From Trachythela sp. YZ-2020 (lineage: Eukaryota; Cnidaria; Anthozoa; Malacalcyonacea; Clavulariidae): a DNA stretch of 64,000 bases. How positions within the stretch are numbered: position 1 is the stretch's first letter; each line of letters starts with the position of its first letter. The notes below the pieces were generated by a model that saw nothing but the letters and a program-made list of their open reading frames with translations, was not told the DNA's origin and searched no databases. This document shows, piece by piece, positions 7,644-31,192 of the stretch. The position numbers were made by a program, and so were the translations under genes. Where the stretch lies: contig JADLSH010000393.1 in the NCBI GenBank assembly GCA_016169945.1, forward strand, positions 5,907,501 to 5,971,500, written 5' to 3'.

Positions 7644-8871
7644 AGTCAATGTAGTCCTATGATTGGATCAAAATTAAGGTGGTCAATACAAATGGTGGCC
7701 CTATAATGGCTCTATCCTAAAAAAATAAAAAATGCAATCGTTACAGCCTTCTTAATCAGATCTGTAGAATTCTAAACGCATAAGCGAAAAAATCCAGCTT
7801 ATTCTACACCATTCTTGGGGTAAAACCATGATTTTACCCTAAGCTTTGTTCTATCATATTGTTTCTACCTCCTCCACAGGCGCTTTATTAATTGGAGCGG
7901 GCTTGGAAAATTAGGGAAGGGACGCACGGGCGACATAAAAAAATGCGGGTAAGGCGAAGTGAAGCGCCTGCTGACTAATGTTCTCAAGATGGCAGAAGCT
8001 ATTCACCACTTATTCACTTAATTTGACTATAATCGTCCGGAGAAAGAGTTTGTTAATTAGCAATTATTGAAAGAGGTTGAGCGTGATATGAAGAATTATC
8101 ATGCCCGAAGTTTGCCGTGTTAATTCTTCATATCACGCGAAAACCGAGTTCAATAATTGTTTTATTATTTATTTAAAAAATTAAAAATATCTTGCGAACC
8201 TTGAGGAAGCCATTTGTTTTTTCACGGCAGTGTTGGCAGTTGTCATTGTCAACGAGTCAATATGATTGTCGTCGCCGTAACCATGACAACGAAGTCATAT
8301 TGACGCGTCAATAATTATCATATTGACTCGCTTGACCATATTTGGCAAGCTGTCGCCGCGTAAAGAGCCTGGACACGAGGTTGTTGAGTTGATATGACGA
8401 TTTCACAGTTGACTGTTAGCCAATCAGAAACCAGGAATTTTTTAAAGAAATAATGATTCTTATGAACGTAGGCTCTTACAAAAGGCTAAGGAAGGTGGGA
8501 AAGTACTTTGCCCTAACTGTCACGCTTCTGATGGCAAAATAAATGAGCATATATTTGCATATAATTTTCCTTCCAAGTTAACATATTCATAGTCAAATAC
8601 ATACTCATACTACATACTGAATGACACATTAATGATGTCGACATCACTATCACTGAAGTCAGTTGAACCCTTCGCATTTTGAGTGCATTTTTCGGTGTTG
8701 TTGCCCATCGAGACTGAGGACAAAAACACTTTGATTCAACGTTTCATATTTCGATTAATATGGATCATATTTCAGCAATAACTTTCAAAATATACCCATC
8801 TAAGATGGAAAACACGAAAACATATCGTTTTACGCTGTGATGGGCAATATTTCAGGCATTACATACATACA
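7644..8871. other. Intergenic with small inverted repeats
   Basis: No gene was recognised. It contains the foldback at 8061-8159 and a weaker inverted pair (gagtcaatatgat near 8253 and atcatattgactcg near 8318). Confidence 0.5.
8061..8159. mobile_element. 99-bp foldback MITE
   Basis: The left arm 'caattattgaa...gcgtgatatgaagaatta' is matched by 'taattcttcatatcacgc...ttcaataattg' on the right. The arms are about 38 nt with a short loop. No clear target duplication. Confidence 0.6.
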
Positions 8872-8904
8872 GTAGAACTCCGCTAACTCGAACTCCCAAG
8901 GGAA

Positions 8905-9095
8905 GCGAAAAATTGTTCGAGTTAGCGGGGGTTCGAGTTAACGGGGTTCGAGTTAACGGGGTCGGTGTTGGATTTCGTTATTGGATTTATAATCATTATG
9001 AGTTCGAGTTGACCGATCTCGAGTTCGAGTTGACCGAGTTCAAGTTGACCGATTTCGACTTCGAGTTGACCAACTTCGAGTTGACCGTTTTCAAG
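8905..9095. repeat. Subterminal TTCGAGTT repeat cluster, left end
   Basis: About a dozen copies or variants of 'ttcgagtt(a/g)ac' occur within 190 bp, spaced roughly 10-25 bp, as 'ttcgagttaacggggt' and then 'ttcgagttgaccga'. Such clusters are often transposase-binding sites; that role is inferred. Confidence 0.7.
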
Positions 9096-9381
9096 TTCGA
9101 AATGACCGATTTCGAACTTCTTGTAATGTTTTTCACTTGTGAACGCATAATACCACGTATATTCTAGTAACTAGCCCATAATATATAAAGTTTTCATTTG
9201 TTAAGACAATAGTTCGCCCTCTTTATAAAAGGGAGATAATTACTAAAACAATGTTAATATGTCATATCTATTTTTCATCATGATCAAGGTCAGTGAGACT
9301 CAAAACAGATTAAACTATCCGATTCCACTAACGATTTTAGGGATTTTAAGAACACTCAGACTAGTCCGTTGCTTCTCAATA

Positions 9382-9521
9382 CACCCTTTCTGTAATTACG
9401 TCACAACTCTTTTCTTGACCTGGGAGCCTCGCTGTCATGCATCACGATGATTGGCTAGCAATTAATGAGAATGAGGCTCCCAGGCCAAAAAGAGAGTTGT
9501 GACGTAATTACCGAAAGGGTG
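9382..9521. mobile_element. TA-flanked MITE, copy 1 (sister at 25660)
   Basis: CACCCTTTCTGTAATTACGT faces ACGTAATTACCGAAAGGGTG, with TA on each side (9380-9381, 9522-9523). The inner arms continue with 'cctgggagcctc...gaggctcccagg'. A relative with the same architecture is at 25660-25796. Confidence 0.8.
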
Positions 9522-10231
9522 TATTATACGAAAACGGGTCGTGGTCTATAGAGTTTCATTACAGTAGCACAGTAACCGATTTGAGCAACTGATCACTCGC
9601 AAATTTTGCACAAAACTGAAAAAGAATGGTTGTAATGACAAGATAAAGCAATAACAAATACAAAAAGCATGTACAGAAGTCTGGATGGTCAAGATTGGGC
9701 GACGATTGAGATGGATTGTAAATGCCATCTTGATTAATTGTTGGCAGACACTTTCAAGTTTAGGTAAATTTGTATGAAAACGTCGTCTTACATGTTGTGT
9801 GGAAGTTCTAATTTGTTTAATATGACTCGTATATTATAACTGAACCCATTTACATTGTTTATTTTCAAATTTTCAGTTCAGACTATGAATAAAGACATTT
9901 TTTGGTCAAAAATCGGTGACACTGCCCCTTTAACGCATTAAAGTGTACAAGTTTCTGGGTATTCAGATGATAATTTATTATGCTTCAAATTTCCTAAAAT
10001 AGTTAACCAGAAATGAAGGCACAAACGATAACAGTCTACCTTTTCTTGACAATCAAGTACAACCAAAACGAAAACAGAGCACTGTAACACATACACGGAA
10101 ATATAATGTAAATAGAAATGTTAACAAATCAAAGCACCTAGCGGGAGAATACCGAATCCCTTTGCTTATAAAATGGAATATAAACAACAAGAAATGCACA
10201 ATTTTTGTGTTCTGCACAAGTATGCTCTAGG

Positions 10232-13200
10232 TTATCTACAGCGTATGGGTAAATCTTGCAATGTGTCGAGTTCTTCGGGTGTTAATCGCAATTCGTCTGC
10301 AATTATTATTTCTTTTGGAGGAATAAAATGATTTGAGGTGGACGAACACTTGGAAGTGCATTCAAGCCTTGTACAAAAACGGAAGACGGCATCGATTTGG
10401 AAGTGGTTTCCATTCTTATCTTTGTGAGAGGGTGTGTATTTTCCCATGACGGTAATACAGAGGTCTCCAGTCTTAAACACCCGCTTTCCACAACCTTTAC
10501 ATTTTGGCTTGGGCCCCCCCTGTAGCGGCATCCTTGACAAATTCCACTCAGGTCTATTTATTGACTGTTGATTAGTAGACGATTGAGTCTCAGATGTGGC
10601 TGATGTGCTGGCTGATGTGTTGGCTGATGTGTTGGCTGATGTGTTGGCTGATGTGTTGGCTGATGTGTTGGCTGATGTGCTGGGTGAAGAATTTTTGTCG
10701 AATTTCATAAGCATTGATTTAAGTTCGCTTGTTGTAAAGGCAACTTGATTGAGTCTATAATCGTCTTCTGGAAGCGAAAGTTTATTTAGCATTATATATA
10801 AAATATGACTGCACACCTGAGTACCATTCTTAGTGAATCTACAAATATCTCCATTCTTTAAACATGTGGGCTTGTGTCCTATCGTTACAATAATTTCATC
10901 CTCGTAACATTTGCAAATAAATCTACAGTTAATCTCCGTTCGGTAATCAATGAAAGTTACGCAGATCCTGTAACGTTTGGCCAGTTCCAATGACTTATTG
11001 AATTCTTTTGAACGCCGTGTCCTCTTGTGTGCTCCACGAACCTCCCTATCAGCTCTATGGGTAGAAGATGGATCAACTAAATGAGAAACCGATCGAGATT
11101 GCTCTGTATCTTCAGCACAAAGCTGGTCACCAAACTCTTTCGCGACACGTTGTTGCTCATAGTAACTTTTTAAGATTCCTTGTTCAACGCTAGGACCCTC
11201 ACCAGCTTTCGACTCTCCAGACTGAAAAGTTTGCAAGGAAACTTCAAGTCTTACCATTTCAGCAATATCTTCTTTTGCAGCGGTCACTAAGTCGAGGTTT
11301 CTAGCTCCTTGGTGGGTCCAACTCGCATGTCCTACTTCTGCAAGGTTGGTATTTGGAGGGTTGTTAGCCGGCCGCCAAGCCCTAAATATGTGACCTCTTC
11401 TCTCGTGCCACCAATTGATCCATGACTTCAGGTTTGGCCTTGATGCGTCGTCGACAAACTTTAATAGTTCAACCAAATTTTTTTGATAGTTTGAGGTAGT
11501 TGTGGCCAAAAGCAAACGATCTGTTAACTCAGTAAATTGATCTTTTTCTTCTTGTGTTGGCAGCACTCGTCGGTGTCTATTGCGGCATTCTTTAAAATGG
11601 AACTCACACGATTTGCTCTTGATTAATGCCTGTGGCCCGAACACCTTATCTATTGCTGACCAATTAGCTCCTGCCTCGTCCATACACCAACCTTTTGGGT
11701 CAAACTGGTAGTTAGGCTTTTCAGAAAATTCTGATAGGGCATCGTTCCATAAAACCCAAAAGAGAGAAATGCACTCCTCGGTTTCCCTTTCACAGTCCAT
11801 AGTCGCGAGTTTCACTACACGGCGTAGCAAAGGATGGTATGTCCACAGCGTAAGTGTTTTAAGACCATGGCAACGGCTATGAGTTCCGTCAAAATAACAA
11901 TATTCTTCCCTCATAAAATGATCTTTCGATTGGGCCATATTTAGAGCTATATTGAGGGACACTTTGCTTGTTTTAAAAACGTATGTCGGCTTCGACGGGT
12001 TCATTTTTCTGTTACTGAACGAGTATATGTAGAAAGGATCCTTTTGTTTAGCCTTTTCTCGCAGTTTTGTTACTGCGTCAAAGCTGTGGCCATAGGGGTT
12101 AACCTTCTTTTTCATTGCATGTTTTAACTTTGACAACGTGTTAACATCTGTCAACTCGCGCGCTTTGTTTGTAATATCATTCCAGTCGCAGTTATCGTCT
12201 ATCATATTTGTAATAGTATGATTTGGAATTTGGACAGGTTTGATATTCTTGTTAGCATTAAGTACGGATTTTATGTATTCTTCACCTGTAGCTTTGGGTT
12301 TAATTGGAGTACAAGTGTGTATTCCTTCATGGTAAACAGTGACAGTAGTCGCTGTGTATCCATTCTCAAATTCCCATATTTTTCTCGCATTGCAAGAAAT
12401 TAGATCGGCATTACCACCACAACAGGAACAATTCTGTCCACTACCAGATAACTCAAATTGCACTGTGTTAAACGTTTTAAATTCTTGAATGTATGGGCAT
12501 TCAATGTTATTGCAAATATAAGAACCTCTACATTCGGCTATTCTTCTAATGCCTGCGAAGGATTTTCGACTCGATGAAATATACGGTCGCCATGGTCGAC
12601 CATCTTTACTGGATGACATCAATTTTGTTTGATTGCAGGGAAGCAAAAACTGGCAATGGCCATCTATGTCGTAAGGTAGAACTTTTACGTGATTTACGGG
12701 GACATCATCCCAATGACATGGCCCAAGATATTCCTTCCTCGCTTTTTTTATCACAGTAGATGTACCCTCGTCCCTATAAAGGAAAAATATATAATTCTTA
12801 CGTTATTAAAACCAACTGAGTAAATAAATAATGGAAGCAACAAATTTAGTTTTCGAGATGAATATTAACACAGCCTCTTATTACAGCATAGTGCTACTAC
12901 TTTCGCTCAGAACGTTCGAATTTATGGGATGATCTGGCCTCCCAATAATTTTTTTTCAGAATACAACCGGCAAGGAATCGTACAAAAAGAAGTATCTGAA
13001 ATATCTGACCAGGACATGTGTTGTACATTGTGGAAATGAGAGACGGAAATTTCTCCAGCCAAAATGTCATCTATTATGTTAAAGCCTGAAAGCAGGAAAT
13101 ATTCTTGTATGAAAGTTACAGTAGTGCTCGTCAAAAGATATTACATGTTTTTTATTCAAATGGAAGTATACCTACATCTCATCATCCGAAAATCTGTTCA

Positions 13201-16145
13201 GCAAATTCTGGTGGGTGGATGTTTTTTTCCTGGAAGATGTGTTAATAAAGTGATTGGTAAATAATAATGTATATTATAAAGCATGAACATATTACTGGAT
13301 TCCGGTTGGTTGGGAGCAGTTCAATTATTTCGTTAAGTAAAGTAAACTACAGTAGCTCAGTCCAAAAAGCAAAACGATCACTGTAGAACAATCAAATATT
13401 GAAGCAAACGCTGGAAGTAGCATAAAGATTTAGCCGATATTAGATCATACTACGAAGTTCCACAAAATCTTAATGCGGGAGTGTGAAGATACATCCTGAA
13501 ATTAATGCAATTTGCCTTCAACTTACCACTGGCAAAATGTTCAATGATTACCTATTATCACTTATCATACATAGTATTATCACTATTATATGATAACTGA
13601 ATATGAGGTTTGCATGACATCTAGCTAAAAATAAGTTGTCATATATGTAAAGAGAATATAGTTGGTAGCACGTCAACTAAGTACTGATGCTGTACATAGA
13701 GAACACACAGTACCTTGAAGTTGCAGAATTTATACATTTTTCTGGCGTGTTCTCTATGCTGCTGTCATTCACCAGCTCACATATAGCTTCCTGTAAAACA
13801 TGAAAATTCCGTATAAAGCGATTAGTGTACGTAATATGTACCGCAAGATTGTATATTGATTGCATAAATTCATGAAATAATGGTAATTGTCAGCGTATAA
13901 GTGCAACATGTACAATATTTCAATATCAAAACAAGAACAATGAACATTTTCAAACCCTTACAATATCAGATGAAGAGTCACCAGGCTTTTCTTTTTTTGG
14001 AATGCCATCATTGTGTGCATTGATTATGTGATTTAACAGCTTTTTTTCGGTCCAACAAGCCTCTTTACAAAATGGACACTGTTTCTTTGGCATAGCCTTA
14101 AAAAAATAGAGAATACTAATAGTGTGAAGAAACACTTTAAAATATCTACAGTACTCCAAAGCCAATGTAAATATGTTTGGTTTACTAATATTAAGTATCT
14201 GCTATGACAACTTTGCTGTGTGATCTGAATATCATTCTCAACAAGAATGACTATATTTTTTGCAGCAATATCTCAGCTCACAAGTAACACATAGATAAAC
14301 TATACTTTATACCTTGCTTTTATGCTGTTTTGAAGGATTTAATAACTCTATATCACTGTCACAATCCTTGTCACTGTCTATGTCATTTTCATGATTATTT
14401 CTCTACCAACAAATTGAAACAGATATCCAATGAATCATGGAATACAGAACACAGGGTGCATCATAAAATGTGACACTTTAGAAATTAGAACCTTTAGAAA
14501 AACAATGATCTTATACACTTGGGAATTTGAGATAGCTTCATACTGTATACGCATCAGTAAGACAAAGCGAAATTTCTGAAGATTCTGATTTCTAAAGGGT
14601 CACCTTTTTATGATACACCCTGTATAGAGGGCAAATATGATCCTTGACAGCTGTAGACAGTTGACATTGAATCATTACAGTATGCATTCATGAGTTTATA
14701 AACAAGTACTATATTGTTTTTTTCTTTTCTTAAGTATTCATTGTATGAATTAATTGTTTTTTGGTCAAAGTTAACATTTGCATTCATTTACCCTGAGACC
14801 CCAGGTCACTAAGCCCAGCTGCAAAGATCATTGAGAAAAAATTGCAGAAGGCAAAAAGATGTCACAGTGTGTGAGAATGTTTCTGTGATTTTAGGGGTGT
14901 TGCCAGGATTCAAAACCATATTCCTTCACATGCAGTACTATATCCTGTCCTAAATACAAACCTTTTTTTTCATGTTTCCGGAACATCCCTGTGGCAATAT
15001 TGGTTCCCCCGGATTGTAGCTTTCTTCTTCCCACCATTCAAATGTACAGTCCTTCCTTTTTCGTTTCTTACATGAAGATTCCTTGAGGGTGAGAAGGAGA
15101 TTAACTTACAATAATGTCCTTCAATTAAGGTCTTAAGGTCATTCATAATTATCAATATTTTCAAAAATACCCTCTTTGTGTCAGAGCTGAGCGAGGTTTA
15201 GTTAATGCTAAATAAAGTTGCGTGACTTTGGATTTAATTTATTTGAACAGTTTTGCATGCGAACCATATATGGTGTTGTTATTGTAAAAACTGTGAGAGA
15301 GATGCGAGAAAAGTGAGACAAGCAAGAGAGTTTATATTTTATATTTTTGTAATAAGGATTCTTTATAACCTTTTTGAGACTTTTTGGGATCGTCATCACT
15401 TGGAATTAATCAAAGAAGTATAAAGAAATGGCAGTTTATGGAAGATATAAAATTGAAGGGAAATTAACATAATTATGTACATGTATATATGGTCATGATT
15501 TTTTATGCTTTCGGCACGGCAGGGTTACTTATTTTCAGTCCTACAAATTTTAAATTACACATCCCCACCCCCCCCCCCCCCTGCTAAATTATGACCAGTC
15601 CCCAGGGCTAAATCATAATAAAGCAATGTGACGTACCTTTCTACATCTTAAACCATTTTCTCTAAAAGTGGAGCTCTTTTCCCTATCAGGATCCGAATTT
15701 TCATCCTCTGAATCCAAAACCAGGACACTTTCAACAGGCCAAACAGGGTCGTCGGTTTTTTCAGCTTTTACAACCTCTGAATAGCTCCTACATGAGATTA
15801 AGAGATGTTGTTATAATAACAGCAGCACAGGAGATCTGAAATTTAATGCATTAAGAGAAAAAGCAAAGCACCACAAGCGAAGCATTAGACTTTCTCAAAG
15901 TCTGACAAAGTTTATATGTCAAATTGTCAATATGTGTGATGCACAAGATATTTTTTGATATTACAAGACATACCTTTTATTACTAAACTGGCCATGTCCA
16001 GCACCTTCAATAACCTTGATAAAAAGCAAAATACAAATAGGGATTTTGCTTAGGATCACGTAGTATTAAAAACCTAAAAATCCATCCATTTTTCTAATTT
16101 ACATACCTCTAAGTTTAAAATCTCTGAACTTTTTCGTTCCGCCAT
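10232..16145 (-). CDS. Spliced MULE-like transposase with C2H2 and SWIM zinc motifs
   Basis: I read eight exons on the minus strand: 16145-16107, 16014-15974, 15787-15637, 15081-14962, 14402-14313, 14096-13962, 13790-13714 and 12773-10232. All junctions are GT-AG and join in frame, giving 1064 codons from ATG (16145) to TAA (10232). Exons 3-5 encode an acidic/basic linker. Exon 6 encodes a C2H2 finger (CPFCKEACWTEKKLLNHIIN then AH). Exon 8 holds a Cys-rich N-terminal zinc region, then the catalytic core: D in YFDGTHSR, D in WCMDEAGANW, the FHFKECRNRH helix, and E in NTNLAEVGHASW, the D-D-E layout of Mutator-like transposases. A SWIM-like motif (CRFTKNGTQVCSH), a (SANT)n low-complexity stretch and a final Cys cluster (CKGCGKRVF...CTRLEC) follow. 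No frame break was found, so the copy may be recent. An alternative is a domesticated gene, but it sits inside transposon ends. Confidence 0.82.
10597..10682 (-). repeat. 12-bp tandem repeat inside the transposase gene
   Basis: The unit 'gctgatgtgttg' (variant 'ctggctgatgtg') is repeated about seven times. On the coding strand it gives the Ser-Ala-Asn-Thr repeat between the SWIM-like motif and the C-terminal zinc cluster. Its length is a multiple of three throughout, so the frame is kept. Confidence 0.85.
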
Positions 16146-16204
16146 CGTGCGCTTTGCGCTTGAGCATCGTGAATTTACTCCGTATTACCGCTGCCCAAGA
16201 ATCT

Positions 16205-16640
16205 AACTCGAACTCGTGACTGAACTCGAACTCAAAATCGTAACTCGAACTCATAAAATAGAATATCTCTCGTTTATTATGTTAATAATTAATAAGATAT
16301 AGTCGTTTTATTGTACCTATCACAGTGTTTGCGCGAAGTTTACTTCGCTAATAGTTAAAAAAGAAGATAAACAATGAAACTAAGTAGAAGATCAGTGATG
16401 ATCGACGCAACTTGTTGAACCTTTTATCTCTTTATGCACTTGAATTATGTTTGTAGATATTATATACCGATTAAATTGTTGTTGTCTGAATAGAAATCCA
16501 AGCTTCCGACTTGTCAATGTGCTATGTTCTGACATTTTGAGGTTTGCCGATGCACGTCTCGAAAATAGAGTTCGAGTTAACTGGGTAAATTTGACCAAGG
16601 GAAAATGAAATTTGATGGAGTTAGCGAGGAGTTCGAGTTA
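16205..16640. repeat. Subterminal TTCGAGTT/AACTCGAAC repeats, right end
   Basis: Copies of 'aactcgaac' sit at about 16205-16250 just upstream of the transposase start, and 'ttcgagttaac' copies sit at about 16567-16640. Their position mirrors the left-end cluster. The first group lies in the likely promoter of the transposase gene, so transposase binding could affect its own expression; that is speculation. Confidence 0.6.
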
Positions 16641-16702
16641 ACCGGAGTAAATTACTGTAATCTCGAACCTGTGGTGCCAGTGTGGGTAGAGTATAGCAAA
16701 TA

Positions 16703-16783
16703 CGGCGGTTGACTGTTGTGTAAAACTACCTGTGTAAAACTCATTGTATTTTTCAGGTAGTTTTACACAACAGTCAACCGCCG
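16703..16783. mobile_element. 81-bp hairpin MITE
   Basis: CGGCGGTTGACTGTTGTGTA faces TACACAACAGTCAACCGCCG, continuing into 'aaactacctg/caggtagttt'. The arms are about 30 nt, apparently perfect, with a loop of about 20 nt. Confidence 0.75.
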
Positions 16784-16838
16784 AAATTGGATTTAATTAG
16801 TTCGAGTTAGCGGGGAGTTCGAGTTAAGCGAGTTCGAG

Positions 16839-17982
16839 CACAGGCGGCCCAATTTCAGGGTGAGTGATCAGGAGTTGCGGGTTTTTAACGGCTTTTTATA
16901 AACAAATTTTATACTCCACCAAAACTATTCTAAAAACATTCTTAAATTAGTCAAATAACTACACTTTAACAATAAAATATAGTTGACATGATAGTATAAT
17001 GCCTTTGCATTATTTTAATTACGCCATGGGCTCATTTAGAGCGGTTTATGCAACCTTTTCTGTGGCCTATATGTTGTGTCAAATTGTGTGTTGCTCGTTA
17101 TATGTGTATAGAAGCTAAAGGCTAATTACTCGCGGCCCGACCGTATCGCTTAAAACTCAAATATCTCCGCTCAAACTTGTCGTACGGCAAAAAAAATTCG
17201 ATCAGATCTTTTCACAAAGGTTTCTCTTTCTAACGAATATGGTTTGATCATAACTCGGGCAAATTTAGCGACGAACGGAGCCAAAATCTCTCAATTTCGG
17301 CTATGTTCATAAATACTTGGAACTGTTCGGGCATGATCGTGGACGTGACGTAAACAACTGGTAAACAATACCGTCTTACGCGGGGTGGGACAGCAGTCAA
17401 ATTGACGAGTAGCGACGAATTTGACTGCTGTCCCACCCCGCGTAAGACGGTATTGTTTACCAGTTGTTTACGTCACGTCCACGATCATGCCCGAACAGTT
17501 CCAAGTATTTATGAACATAGCCGAAATTGAGAGATTTTGGCTCCGTTCGTCGCTAAATTTGCCCGAGTTATGATCAAACCATATTCGTTAGAAAGAGAAA
17601 CCTTTGTGAAAAGATCTGATCGAATTTTTTTTGCCGTACGACAAGTTTGAGCGGAGATATTTGAGTTTTAAGCGATACGGTCGGGCCGCGAGTAATTAGC
17701 CTTTAGCTTCTATACACATATAACGAGCAACACACAATTTGACACAACATATAGGCCACAGAAAAGGTTGCATAAACCGCTCTAAATGAGCCCATGGCGT
17801 AATTAAAATAATGCAAAGGCATTATACTATCATGTCAACTATATTTTATTGTTAAAGTGTAGTTATTTGACTAATTTAAGAATGTTTTTAGAATAGTTTT
17901 GGTGGAGTATAAAATTTGTTTATAAAAAGCCGTTAAAAACCCGCAACTCCTGATCACTCACCCTGAAATTGGGCCGCCTGTG
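16839..17982. mobile_element. 1.14-kb near-perfect palindrome (foldback element)
   Basis: The two arms of about 565 nt start CACAGGCGGCCCAATTTCAG and end as its complement at 17982; the centre at about 17408-17420 has only about 13 unpaired bases. GTTCGAG flanks both sides (16832-16838 and 17983-17989), consistent with a 7-bp target duplication. It has no internal gene; any open frame in it is a palindrome artefact. The arms look essentially identical, implying recent insertion or ongoing correction. Confidence 0.85.
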
Positions 17983-29841: not shown

Positions 29842-30992
29842 TTATTGAGCAACTCTTAATAGTCTATGGTATAGTGCAACTGCATCTCTCCAAGAATTTG
29901 GCTCAGCAATACCAATCATTTGATTGGCATAAGATAGGTACTCTTTGTAAATCAGTGATTCATTTGAATCATCAGATGGATGAAGTTCATTGTCAATTTC
30001 TTCTAGATCCTCGGGTTGTATTGGTGTTTGTAGTCTATAGTACCAACACTATCTGGTAAAAAGTACAGAGTGTTGGGGATCCCTGAAGCAGTATGGTGTC
30101 GAGACTTACGAATGTAGTGATTGTTCCATTCATCCCTTACTTCATCTAATTCTTTCTGTATAATCTTACTGAAACAAAACCAAATGCACTCCATATGCAT
30201 TCTGTTGCTAGTATCAAGATTTCCTGCATCAATCATGTCCTTGAAAAAGTTAATCCACCATGAACTCCATGACCGCCTTAGGTAGGCCCACCAAGCTTCA
30301 ATGCGTTGATTGCTATGTGAAGAACCAAAACGGTGAGCTTTTAAGCCAGCAAATGAATCAGTACCATTTCTTCTGAGGAAGCACTGACCTGTGGACATAA
30401 TTCCATTTTCAGTACCTCGATCTGTTCGAAGAATTGATGGGCAACCACCAGCTTCAATTACAGCATCCCTAAATAACTTTCCAATTATTTTAGGATCATT
30501 GTTACTCATTTCAAGTTTCAGCCATATGACACGCCGACTAAACCCATCAATACAGCCATGTATAGGTAATCCATAAGGTTTAAGCTTGTCATATCCGTCG
30601 GCGTGCCAACAGTAATTTGGCCCTGGATTGGTGTAATTTCTTCTTTTCAGCCTGTGGGCTTGTCTAAGCCTGGTTCCTTCTGGGTCCATTTCTCTCAACA
30701 GGACTTCTACCGCAGATCGTGATACATTTATTCCATACTTTACATGTAGTTTTCGCCACATTGCTCGGTAACCAAGTAGGTTTCCAGCTCCTTCGAGTTC
30801 CTTGCTAATGTGCTCTCGAAGAACAGCTTCATTTATCTCACAATTTCGTCGAGTTAAACCATATTGTTTCAAACGATTCAAAAGAGTCCTTTTTGACATC
30901 TTTATATCGTGATATTTATCCAGAAAATCCAATATCGTGTTGTACTCGTACTTTCTGGAAAAGTAATACCTAATTGCTTCCTCTTCATCCAT
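29842..30992 (-). pseudogene. DDE integrase-like transposase, one frameshift near the C-terminus
   Basis: Starting at ATG 30992, the protein has an N-terminal helix-turn-helix region (ILDFLDKYHDIKMSKRTLLN then RLKQYGL). A retroviral-integrase-type core follows with all three acidic residues: D in CWHADGYDKL, D in LRTDRGTEN and E in NQRIEAWWAYLRR. The frame stops at 30003, but the adjacent frame continues with QPEDLEEIDNELHPSDDSNE and YANQMIGIAEPNSWRDAVAL to a TAA at 29842-29844. One indel at about 30025-30045 therefore breaks an otherwise complete gene of roughly 390 codons. The core resembles the rve-like proteins of animals with 'IHGCIDGFSRRV'; an IS3EU-type DNA transposon is a possible home. 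It converges on the HECT gene. Confidence 0.78.
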
Positions 30993-31192
30993 ATATTAAG
31001 CTGAAAAACTGCGCCACATGTCTGTACTGTATCGAATATAAACAATATTTACTACGGTATTTTCCCGCTTCTTCCAAACCCCTCAATGGGCCACATTCAA
31101 GGGGGCGGAGAATTTTGCAACATAAAAATGTGTCCTACAAATTGTGTTTTGCCTTTTGGCTTGTGCGTGTGCTTTGCTATTAAATTCCAAGT

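What the first reader, a model, noticed from the sequence alone, without database searches (positions are those of the whole stretch)
10232..16145. Intact eight-exon MULE-like transposase gene with a C2H2 finger spliced onto a SWIM-containing core
Eight exons join in frame across seven GT-AG introns to give 1064 codons with no stop, while other transposon genes in this window are mostly broken. The layout (acidic linker, C2H2 finger, Cys-rich region, D-D-E core, SWIM-like CxH, C-terminal zinc cluster) is unusually elaborate. The gene sits between TTCGAGTT-rich inverted ends. It could be an active or recently active autonomous element of a poorly described family.
Basis: partly seen in the sequence, partly recalled or inferred. 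Interest (0 to 1): 0.8.

Follow-up and report, generated by a model that had tools for sequence, protein, structure and literature searches.

The report
Recently mobile Mutator-like transposon, Pfam-invisible lineage
This is a complete, recently moved "jumping gene" of the Mutator kind in an animal genome, from a branch that the standard family model does not recognise, in which the DNA-cutting enzyme carries different add-on domains in different members.

Summary
The gene is real: eight exons (16145-10232, minus strand) join in frame to 1064 aa. Exon 8 shows strong past constraint (dN/dS 0.057-0.062 against four ~75%-identical sister copies), and exons 3, 4, 6 and 7 recur as peptides in genomic copies. 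Genomic copies place its ends at 8983 and 16269 (7287 bp; TTCGAGTT subterminal repeats; 9-bp target duplication with one base lost on the left). The outer TTCGAGTT ends belong to an unrelated CAGTAGAAC-ended MITE into which it inserted; empty sites exist. A second copy differs by 21 substitutions in 7009 bases. The predicted last exon (pLDDT 84) has a WRKY-type finger, an IS256/MULE-like DDE core, SWIM and a four-Cys module. Pfam MULE does not find it, but a profile comparison with recognised MULEs scores 54 against at most 22 in 60 shuffles. Verdict: an autonomous, recently mobile element of a divergent MULE lineage whose members carry C2H2, OTU or kinase N-termini. New variant of a known kind.

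The parts
8983..16269 (-). whole element, 7287 bp, transcribed leftwards
   Evidence: ends defined by copies L009, L010, L011, L013, L015 and by uninterrupted MITE copies
8975..8982 (.). left target-site duplication TCGTTATT (one base of nine lost)
   Evidence: compared with the empty site TCGTTTATT in L020, L021, L022, L031
16270..16278 (.). right target-site duplication TCGTTTATT
8983..9010 (.). left terminal inverted repeat (28 bp, 18/28 identical to the right one, innermost 15 identical)
16242..16269 (.). right terminal inverted repeat, reads GAGATATTCTATTTTATGAGTTCGAGTT inward
9000..9115 (.). left subterminal tandem repeats of GAGTTCGAGTTGACC-type units, candidate transposase-binding sites (inferred)
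   Evidence: TRF; the stretch from 8986 to about 9069 is 79-81% conserved in L010, L011, L013
16205..16252 (.). right subterminal TTCGAGTT repeats
   Evidence: 16184-16263 is 80-84% conserved in L010, L011, L012
16107..16145 (-). exon 1 (ATG at 16145)
   Evidence: present in L009 and L015 only
15974..16014 (-). exon 2
   Evidence: L009, L015
15637..15787 (-). exon 3, acidic linker
   Evidence: L015
14962..15081 (-). exon 4, peptide conserved in sister copies
14313..14402 (-). exon 5, acidic linker (weakest support)
   Evidence: copy L009 and a weak 14-aa match in L011
13962..14096 (-). exon 6, carries the C2H2 finger at 14078-14013
13714..13790 (-). exon 7
10232..12773 (-). exon 8, core transposase (846 aa)
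   Evidence: dN/dS 0.057-0.062 against L010-L013
12296..12661 (-). WRKY-type zinc-finger domain
11183..12079 (-). RNase H-like DDE core; D codon 11890-11888 (D513), D codon 11680-11678 (D583), E codon 11338-11336 (E697)
10805..10864 (-). SWIM-type zinc site, Cys-x6-Cys-x9-Cys-x-His (the three A1 relatives have Cys-x-Cys)
   Evidence: A1 profile matches MEKK1 SWIM, E 1.2e-4
10597..10687 (-). 12-bp coding minisatellite (SANT repeats), longer in copy L009
10244..10555 (-). C-terminal four-Cys module, fold resembles PARP-1 zinc finger 2 (tentative)
8870..8982 (.). left part of the host MITE (CAGTAGAACTCC end)
   Evidence: genome copies; other copies shown
16270..16838 (.). right part of the host MITE, cut off by a 565-bp foldback
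   Evidence: comparison with L019 and L031, foldback

Best explanation
An autonomous cut-and-paste DNA transposon of a divergent Mutator-like (MULE) lineage. Shown: its ends, target duplication, recent duplication, an intact open gene model, past purifying selection on the transposase, and a predicted IS256/MULE-type DDE core with the triad conserved. Inferred: the right end drives transcription inward; the spliced transposase binds the TTCGAGTT subterminal repeats through its WRKY-type and C2H2 fingers; D513, D583 and E697 cut at the ends and join them to a target with a 9-bp stagger. The window copy landed inside an older CAGTAGAAC-ended MITE.
Against: No Pfam MULE match in the window protein, and the window locus is not among the 142 PF10551 places listed for the genome (150 of 372 candidates scored). 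hhalign gives only 24% probability in the tool run and 66% in the script run. One of six two-ended copies has no TSD and another only 6 bp. dN/dS against the ~93% copy L015 is 0.41 (414 codons used, 431 set aside) and against L009 2.2 on very few changes. The window's left terminus is altered. No expression or transposition data; exons 1, 2 and 5 are weakly tested.
Confidence: 0.88

Rival explanations
1. A host gene domesticated from a MULE transposase, no longer mobile.
For: In the listing (53 of 413 candidates scored) it is the only copy of its close family with a full-length uninterrupted exon 8; low dN/dS against L010-L013.
Against: It still has both ends and a target duplication, sits inside a MITE whose empty sites exist, and a 99.7% copy lies at another locus. 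The dN/dS is measured between transposon copies, so it reflects selection on the transposase.
Confidence: 0.05
2. A recently dead autonomous element: gene intact by youth, ends already damaged, no longer able to move. This overlaps with the best explanation and differs only on present activity.
For: Left terminus GGA instead of the GAG seen in the 7 other copies with a left end (L009-L013, L015, L017), and one base of the left TSD lost. The 99.7% copy L009 is frame-broken.
Against: The transposase is open throughout and could still act in trans. A changed terminus need not block movement.
Confidence: 0.35
3. One reading: an element bounded by the outer TTCGAGTT-rich ends (8870 to about 16655/16838).
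For: Those ends are inverted and the left one is preceded by TA.
Against: They occur in other genomic copies without the gene, which show the uninterrupted site. The gene-bearing copies whose flanks were printed (L009-L013, L015) lack them.
Confidence: 0.02

Closest known systems
Canonical MULE/ZSWIM-type transposases (Pfam PF10551), including one from the same genome (L048)
   Same: D, D, CxxH, E order and register
   Different: too divergent for PF10551 to detect; larger protein (1064 aa) with a WRKY-type finger and an extra C-terminal four-Cys module
ISCth4 / IS256 family
   Different: about 10% identity; bacterial copy-out/paste-in element (PMC7780238, only its listing and start of abstract seen)
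MuDR-6_HM and 'Ghost sub-group Cnidaria' (groups 14 and 7 of PMC6446971; abstract, passages and the first part of section 6 seen)
   Same: cnidarian MULEs; MuDR-6_HM is listed with an 'Ovarian Tumour Gene' motif, and 11 of the relatives here have OTU-type N-termini
   Different: their sequences are not held here, so identity with this lineage could not be tested
Spectre (arthropod MULE, PMC6446971, passage)
   Same: C2H2 zinc finger plus transposase
   Different: two ORFs, 74-bp TIRs (76 in the table), 8-bp TSD; here one spliced gene, 28-bp TIR, 9-bp TSD
Paramuricea clavata hypothetical protein (P0014)
   Same: 73% identical to the window core, 82-83% to sister copies L010 and L011
   Different: 485-aa record that lacks the N-terminus

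Membership tests
MULE superfamily | DDE catalytic triad with CxxH between second D and E | tested here: met
   conservation and register with recognised MULEs; catalysis itself not tested
MULE superfamily | profile kinship to recognised MULE transposases | tested here: met
   hhalign 54.0 against at most 22.2 in 60 shuffles and 21.5 reversed; remote: probability 24% or 66%
MULE superfamily | match to Pfam PF10551 above its cut-off (a detection model, not a biological definition) | tested here: not met
   none for the window protein; 6 of 47 A2 members match at E <= 1, best 0.0028; no row bears PF10551 in its precomputed Pfam column; window locus not in the list
MULE superfamily | target-site duplication of 8-11 bp (range from a passage of PMC6446971) | tested here: met
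   9 bp: 2 perfect, 2 with one change, 1 of 6 bp, 1 none, of 6 two-ended copies
MULE superfamily | IS256-type RNase H core fold | tested here: met
   ISCth4 first by Foldseek and VIA; predicted model, not solved
MULE superfamily | terminal inverted repeats | tested here: met
   28 bp, 18 identical, innermost 15 identical, plus subterminal repeats; short for a MULE
Published groups MuDR-6_HM / Ghost-Cnidaria | falls in that clade of the published tree | not testable with these tools
   Repbase sequences not held
P element | P-element fold | tested here: inconclusive
KDZ | any | not tested
   no KDZ sequence was compared

The most novel reading that the evidence does not exclude
A deep MULE lineage that PF10551 does not detect, found in cnidarians at least (most members come from unnamed sources), uses one conserved core and joins it to different N-terminal partners: C2H2 finger, OTU-type protease, or a complete protein kinase. 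The kinase branch would be a transposase that phosphorylates itself or host factors to control transposition.
Probability: 0.4. Interest if true: 0.7.

Novelty: new variant of a known kind. Interest (0 to 1): 0.5.

Why it matters
MULE surveys that start from PF10551 would miss this lineage, although one genome holds several families of it, some with near-identical duplicates (e.g. L038/L039, 99.1% over 6.4 kb). It offers an intact animal MULE transposase with defined ends and target duplication, suitable for a yeast excision assay, and a natural series of N-terminal partners (finger, OTU, kinase) in which to ask what those modules do in transposition.

Tried and rejected
Outer TTCGAGTT ends as element boundaries: rejected by empty sites. 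Counting genome copies of the element's own ends: not completed (and repeats of 77), so the number of non-autonomous derivatives is unknown. PARP-type identity of the C-terminal module: the fold match has no sequence support, and the domain folded alone gave pLDDT 40.9 and was not used. PDB profile search with the larger alignment A2 gave no relevant match (4 rows, best E 0.41); the MEKK1 SWIM match came from A1 only. MAFFT alignment of exons 5-7 and introns against the sister copies was unreliable and was replaced by exon-wise tblastn. Ends and TSDs of the distant families were not resolved, apart from one right end. In the A2 counts SWIM and C-terminal residues are poorly aligned or missing in many rows; several rows are partial. 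Literature: no paper held all of transposase, protein kinase domain, MULE, OTU domain and fusion (0 papers); two papers held 4 of 5 of transposase, kinase domain, MuDR, OTU, Cnidaria, neither opened; other searches are. PMC2836005 (passages) reports Ulp1 in some Mutator and OTU in Helitron and Ginger elements; PMC13359780 (passages) has no occurrence of WRKY, SWIM or OTU in its main text. Babu et al. 2006 on WRKY-GCM1 fingers is not held, so whether it covers this lineage is unchecked. P element and KDZ are not excluded.
Full report
What was checked. The closest relative with an organism's name is a partial Paramuricea clavata protein, so an octocoral or other cnidarian host is likely, but this is inference. 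I rebuilt the gene from the raw sequence: eight exons, all GT-AG, 1064 aa.

Is the gene model more than chance? Exon 8 against the four ~75% sister copies L010-L013 gives dN/dS 0.057-0.062 over 786-806 codons, with dS near saturation; 38-58 codons with gaps and 2-3 stop codons per copy were set aside. Against L015 it is 0.41 (414 codons used, 431 set aside, one stop) and against L009 2.2, from too few changes to judge (9 exon differences listed). Exon-wise tblastn against nine copies finds exon 4 in L010, L011, L013, L014 and L015 and split in L012; exon 6 in L010-L015; exon 7 in L011, L012, L014 and weakly L010; exon 3 in L015, with only a weak match in L014. Introns align at 48-56% identity with L010-L013, little better than unrelated sequence. 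The exon-4 acceptor is kept in 4 of 5 copies shown, its donor in 5 of 5, the exon-6 donor in 3 of 6 and the exon-7 acceptor in 3 of 4; the exon-6 acceptor is not seen at the same place in the sisters. Exon 5 has only a weak 14-aa match outside L009, and exons 1-2 only L009 and L015.

Where does the element end? blastn of the surroundings against nine fetched copies shows that copy L009 matches from window 8986 to 16269, and that several ~75% copies share the same end regions. Lined up, the left ends read GAGTTTATAATC[A/T]TTATGAGTTCGAGTT (GGA in the window), and the right ends, read inward, GAGATATTC or, in L010-L012, GGGTCTTTC, followed by TATTTTATGAGTTCGAGTT. The flank 8870-8979 occurs elsewhere in the genome (70 listed matches from 40 scored candidates, many of them tandem units at two places, so copy number is uncertain). 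It is the end of a CAGTAGAAC-ended MITE. All five other MITE loci displayed carry the uninterrupted site (L019 with one base changed). TA precedes the left end in the window, L020, L021, L022 and L031, and AA in L019; both ends were seen only in L019 and L031. Against that site the window shows TCGTT-ATT on the left and TCGTTTATT on the right: a 9-bp duplication with one base lost. L010 and L012 have perfect 9-bp duplications, L015 has one mismatch, L009 shares 6 bp, L011 has none, and no right end was recognised in L013 and L017.

How recent? L009 differs by 21 substitutions in 7009 aligned bases; 278 window bases have no counterpart there. Its gene is out of frame early in exon 8. Among the matches above about 65% identity (53 of 413 candidates scored), only the window holds a full-length uninterrupted exon 8. 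The window copy's left terminus is GGA where the 7 other copies with a left end have GAG.

Is it a MULE? PF10551 does not find it, none of the 142 PF10551 places listed in this genome is at the window locus, and no row bears PF10551. A profile comparison with 22 recognised MULEs, chosen from 89 homologs of one in the same genome, aligns D, D, CxxH and E in register and scores 54.0 against a mean of 17.2 and maximum of 22.2 in 60 column shuffles, and 21.5 reversed; the program's own probability is 24% or 66%. With the 9-bp TSD and terminal repeats this makes it a divergent MULE.

Its lineage. 63 distinct homologs were found in two searches; 40 have more than 40 residues before the core. Of those 40, the extension matches P0050- or P0002-type OTU regions in 11 (a Pfam OTU domain was seen in P0002 and P0050 themselves) and the P0015 protein kinase in 6; the C2H2 pattern is in none. 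Many records are single-exon or partial, so absence proves little. In a 73-tip tree (57 database proteins, 15 genomic copies, the window; midpoint-rooted FastTree) the 6 kinase members lie in a clade of 12 (support 0.995; the other 6 carry no kinase in the record), the 6 C2H2 copies in a clade of 8 with P0014 and P0004 (support 1.0), and the 10 OTU members included are scattered. Pfam confirms the kinase domain in all six. This genome holds further families of the lineage, 27-39% identical in separate stretches, some with near-identical duplicates, and OTU-type N-terminal matches upstream in L046 (P0002 type) and short P0005-type matches in L040, L041, L042 and L047 (the P0005 N-terminus resembles OTU by eye only).

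How it probably works. Inferred from MULE biology: the transposase binds the TTCGAGTT subterminal repeats through its fingers, pairs the ends, cuts and reinserts with a 9-bp stagger. The ends, TSD, constraint and predicted fold are shown; binding and catalysis are not.

Noticed in passing
P0015, P0016, P0020, P0022, P0024, P0026 (relatives, not in the window): Six relatives carry a protein kinase domain at the N-terminus (Pfam Pkinase E 2.1e-30 to 5.4e-33) and fall in one clade of 12. P0016, P0020, P0022, P0024 and also P0059 share with P0015 a further region without a Pfam match, protease-like by eye.
   Followed up: partly
16839-17403 and 17418-17982: A 565-nt perfect inverted repeat with a 14-nt spacer: a foldback insertion cutting the MITE, or an assembly artefact.
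   Followed up: no
8885-8954 and 9003-9082: The MULE and the unrelated MITE it landed in both have TTCGAGTT in their end repeats. The printed flanks of other MULE copies do not show the MITE, so this may be coincidence or a shared binding factor.
   Followed up: partly
10597-10687: 12-bp coding minisatellite whose copy number differs between the window and the 99.7% copy L009.
   Followed up: partly
9378-9525: 61-nt imperfect palindrome (89%) inside the element's 3' region, also present in L009.
   Followed up: no
L038 and L039: Another family of this lineage, 99.1% identical over 6.4 kb, with an array of GACTCGCGCCTTTTAGTCGC-type repeats before a right end that reads GAGATTGTC inward.
   Followed up: partly
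30003-30995 (-): Open frame matching Pfam rva_4 integrase core (E 3e-33).
   Followed up: no
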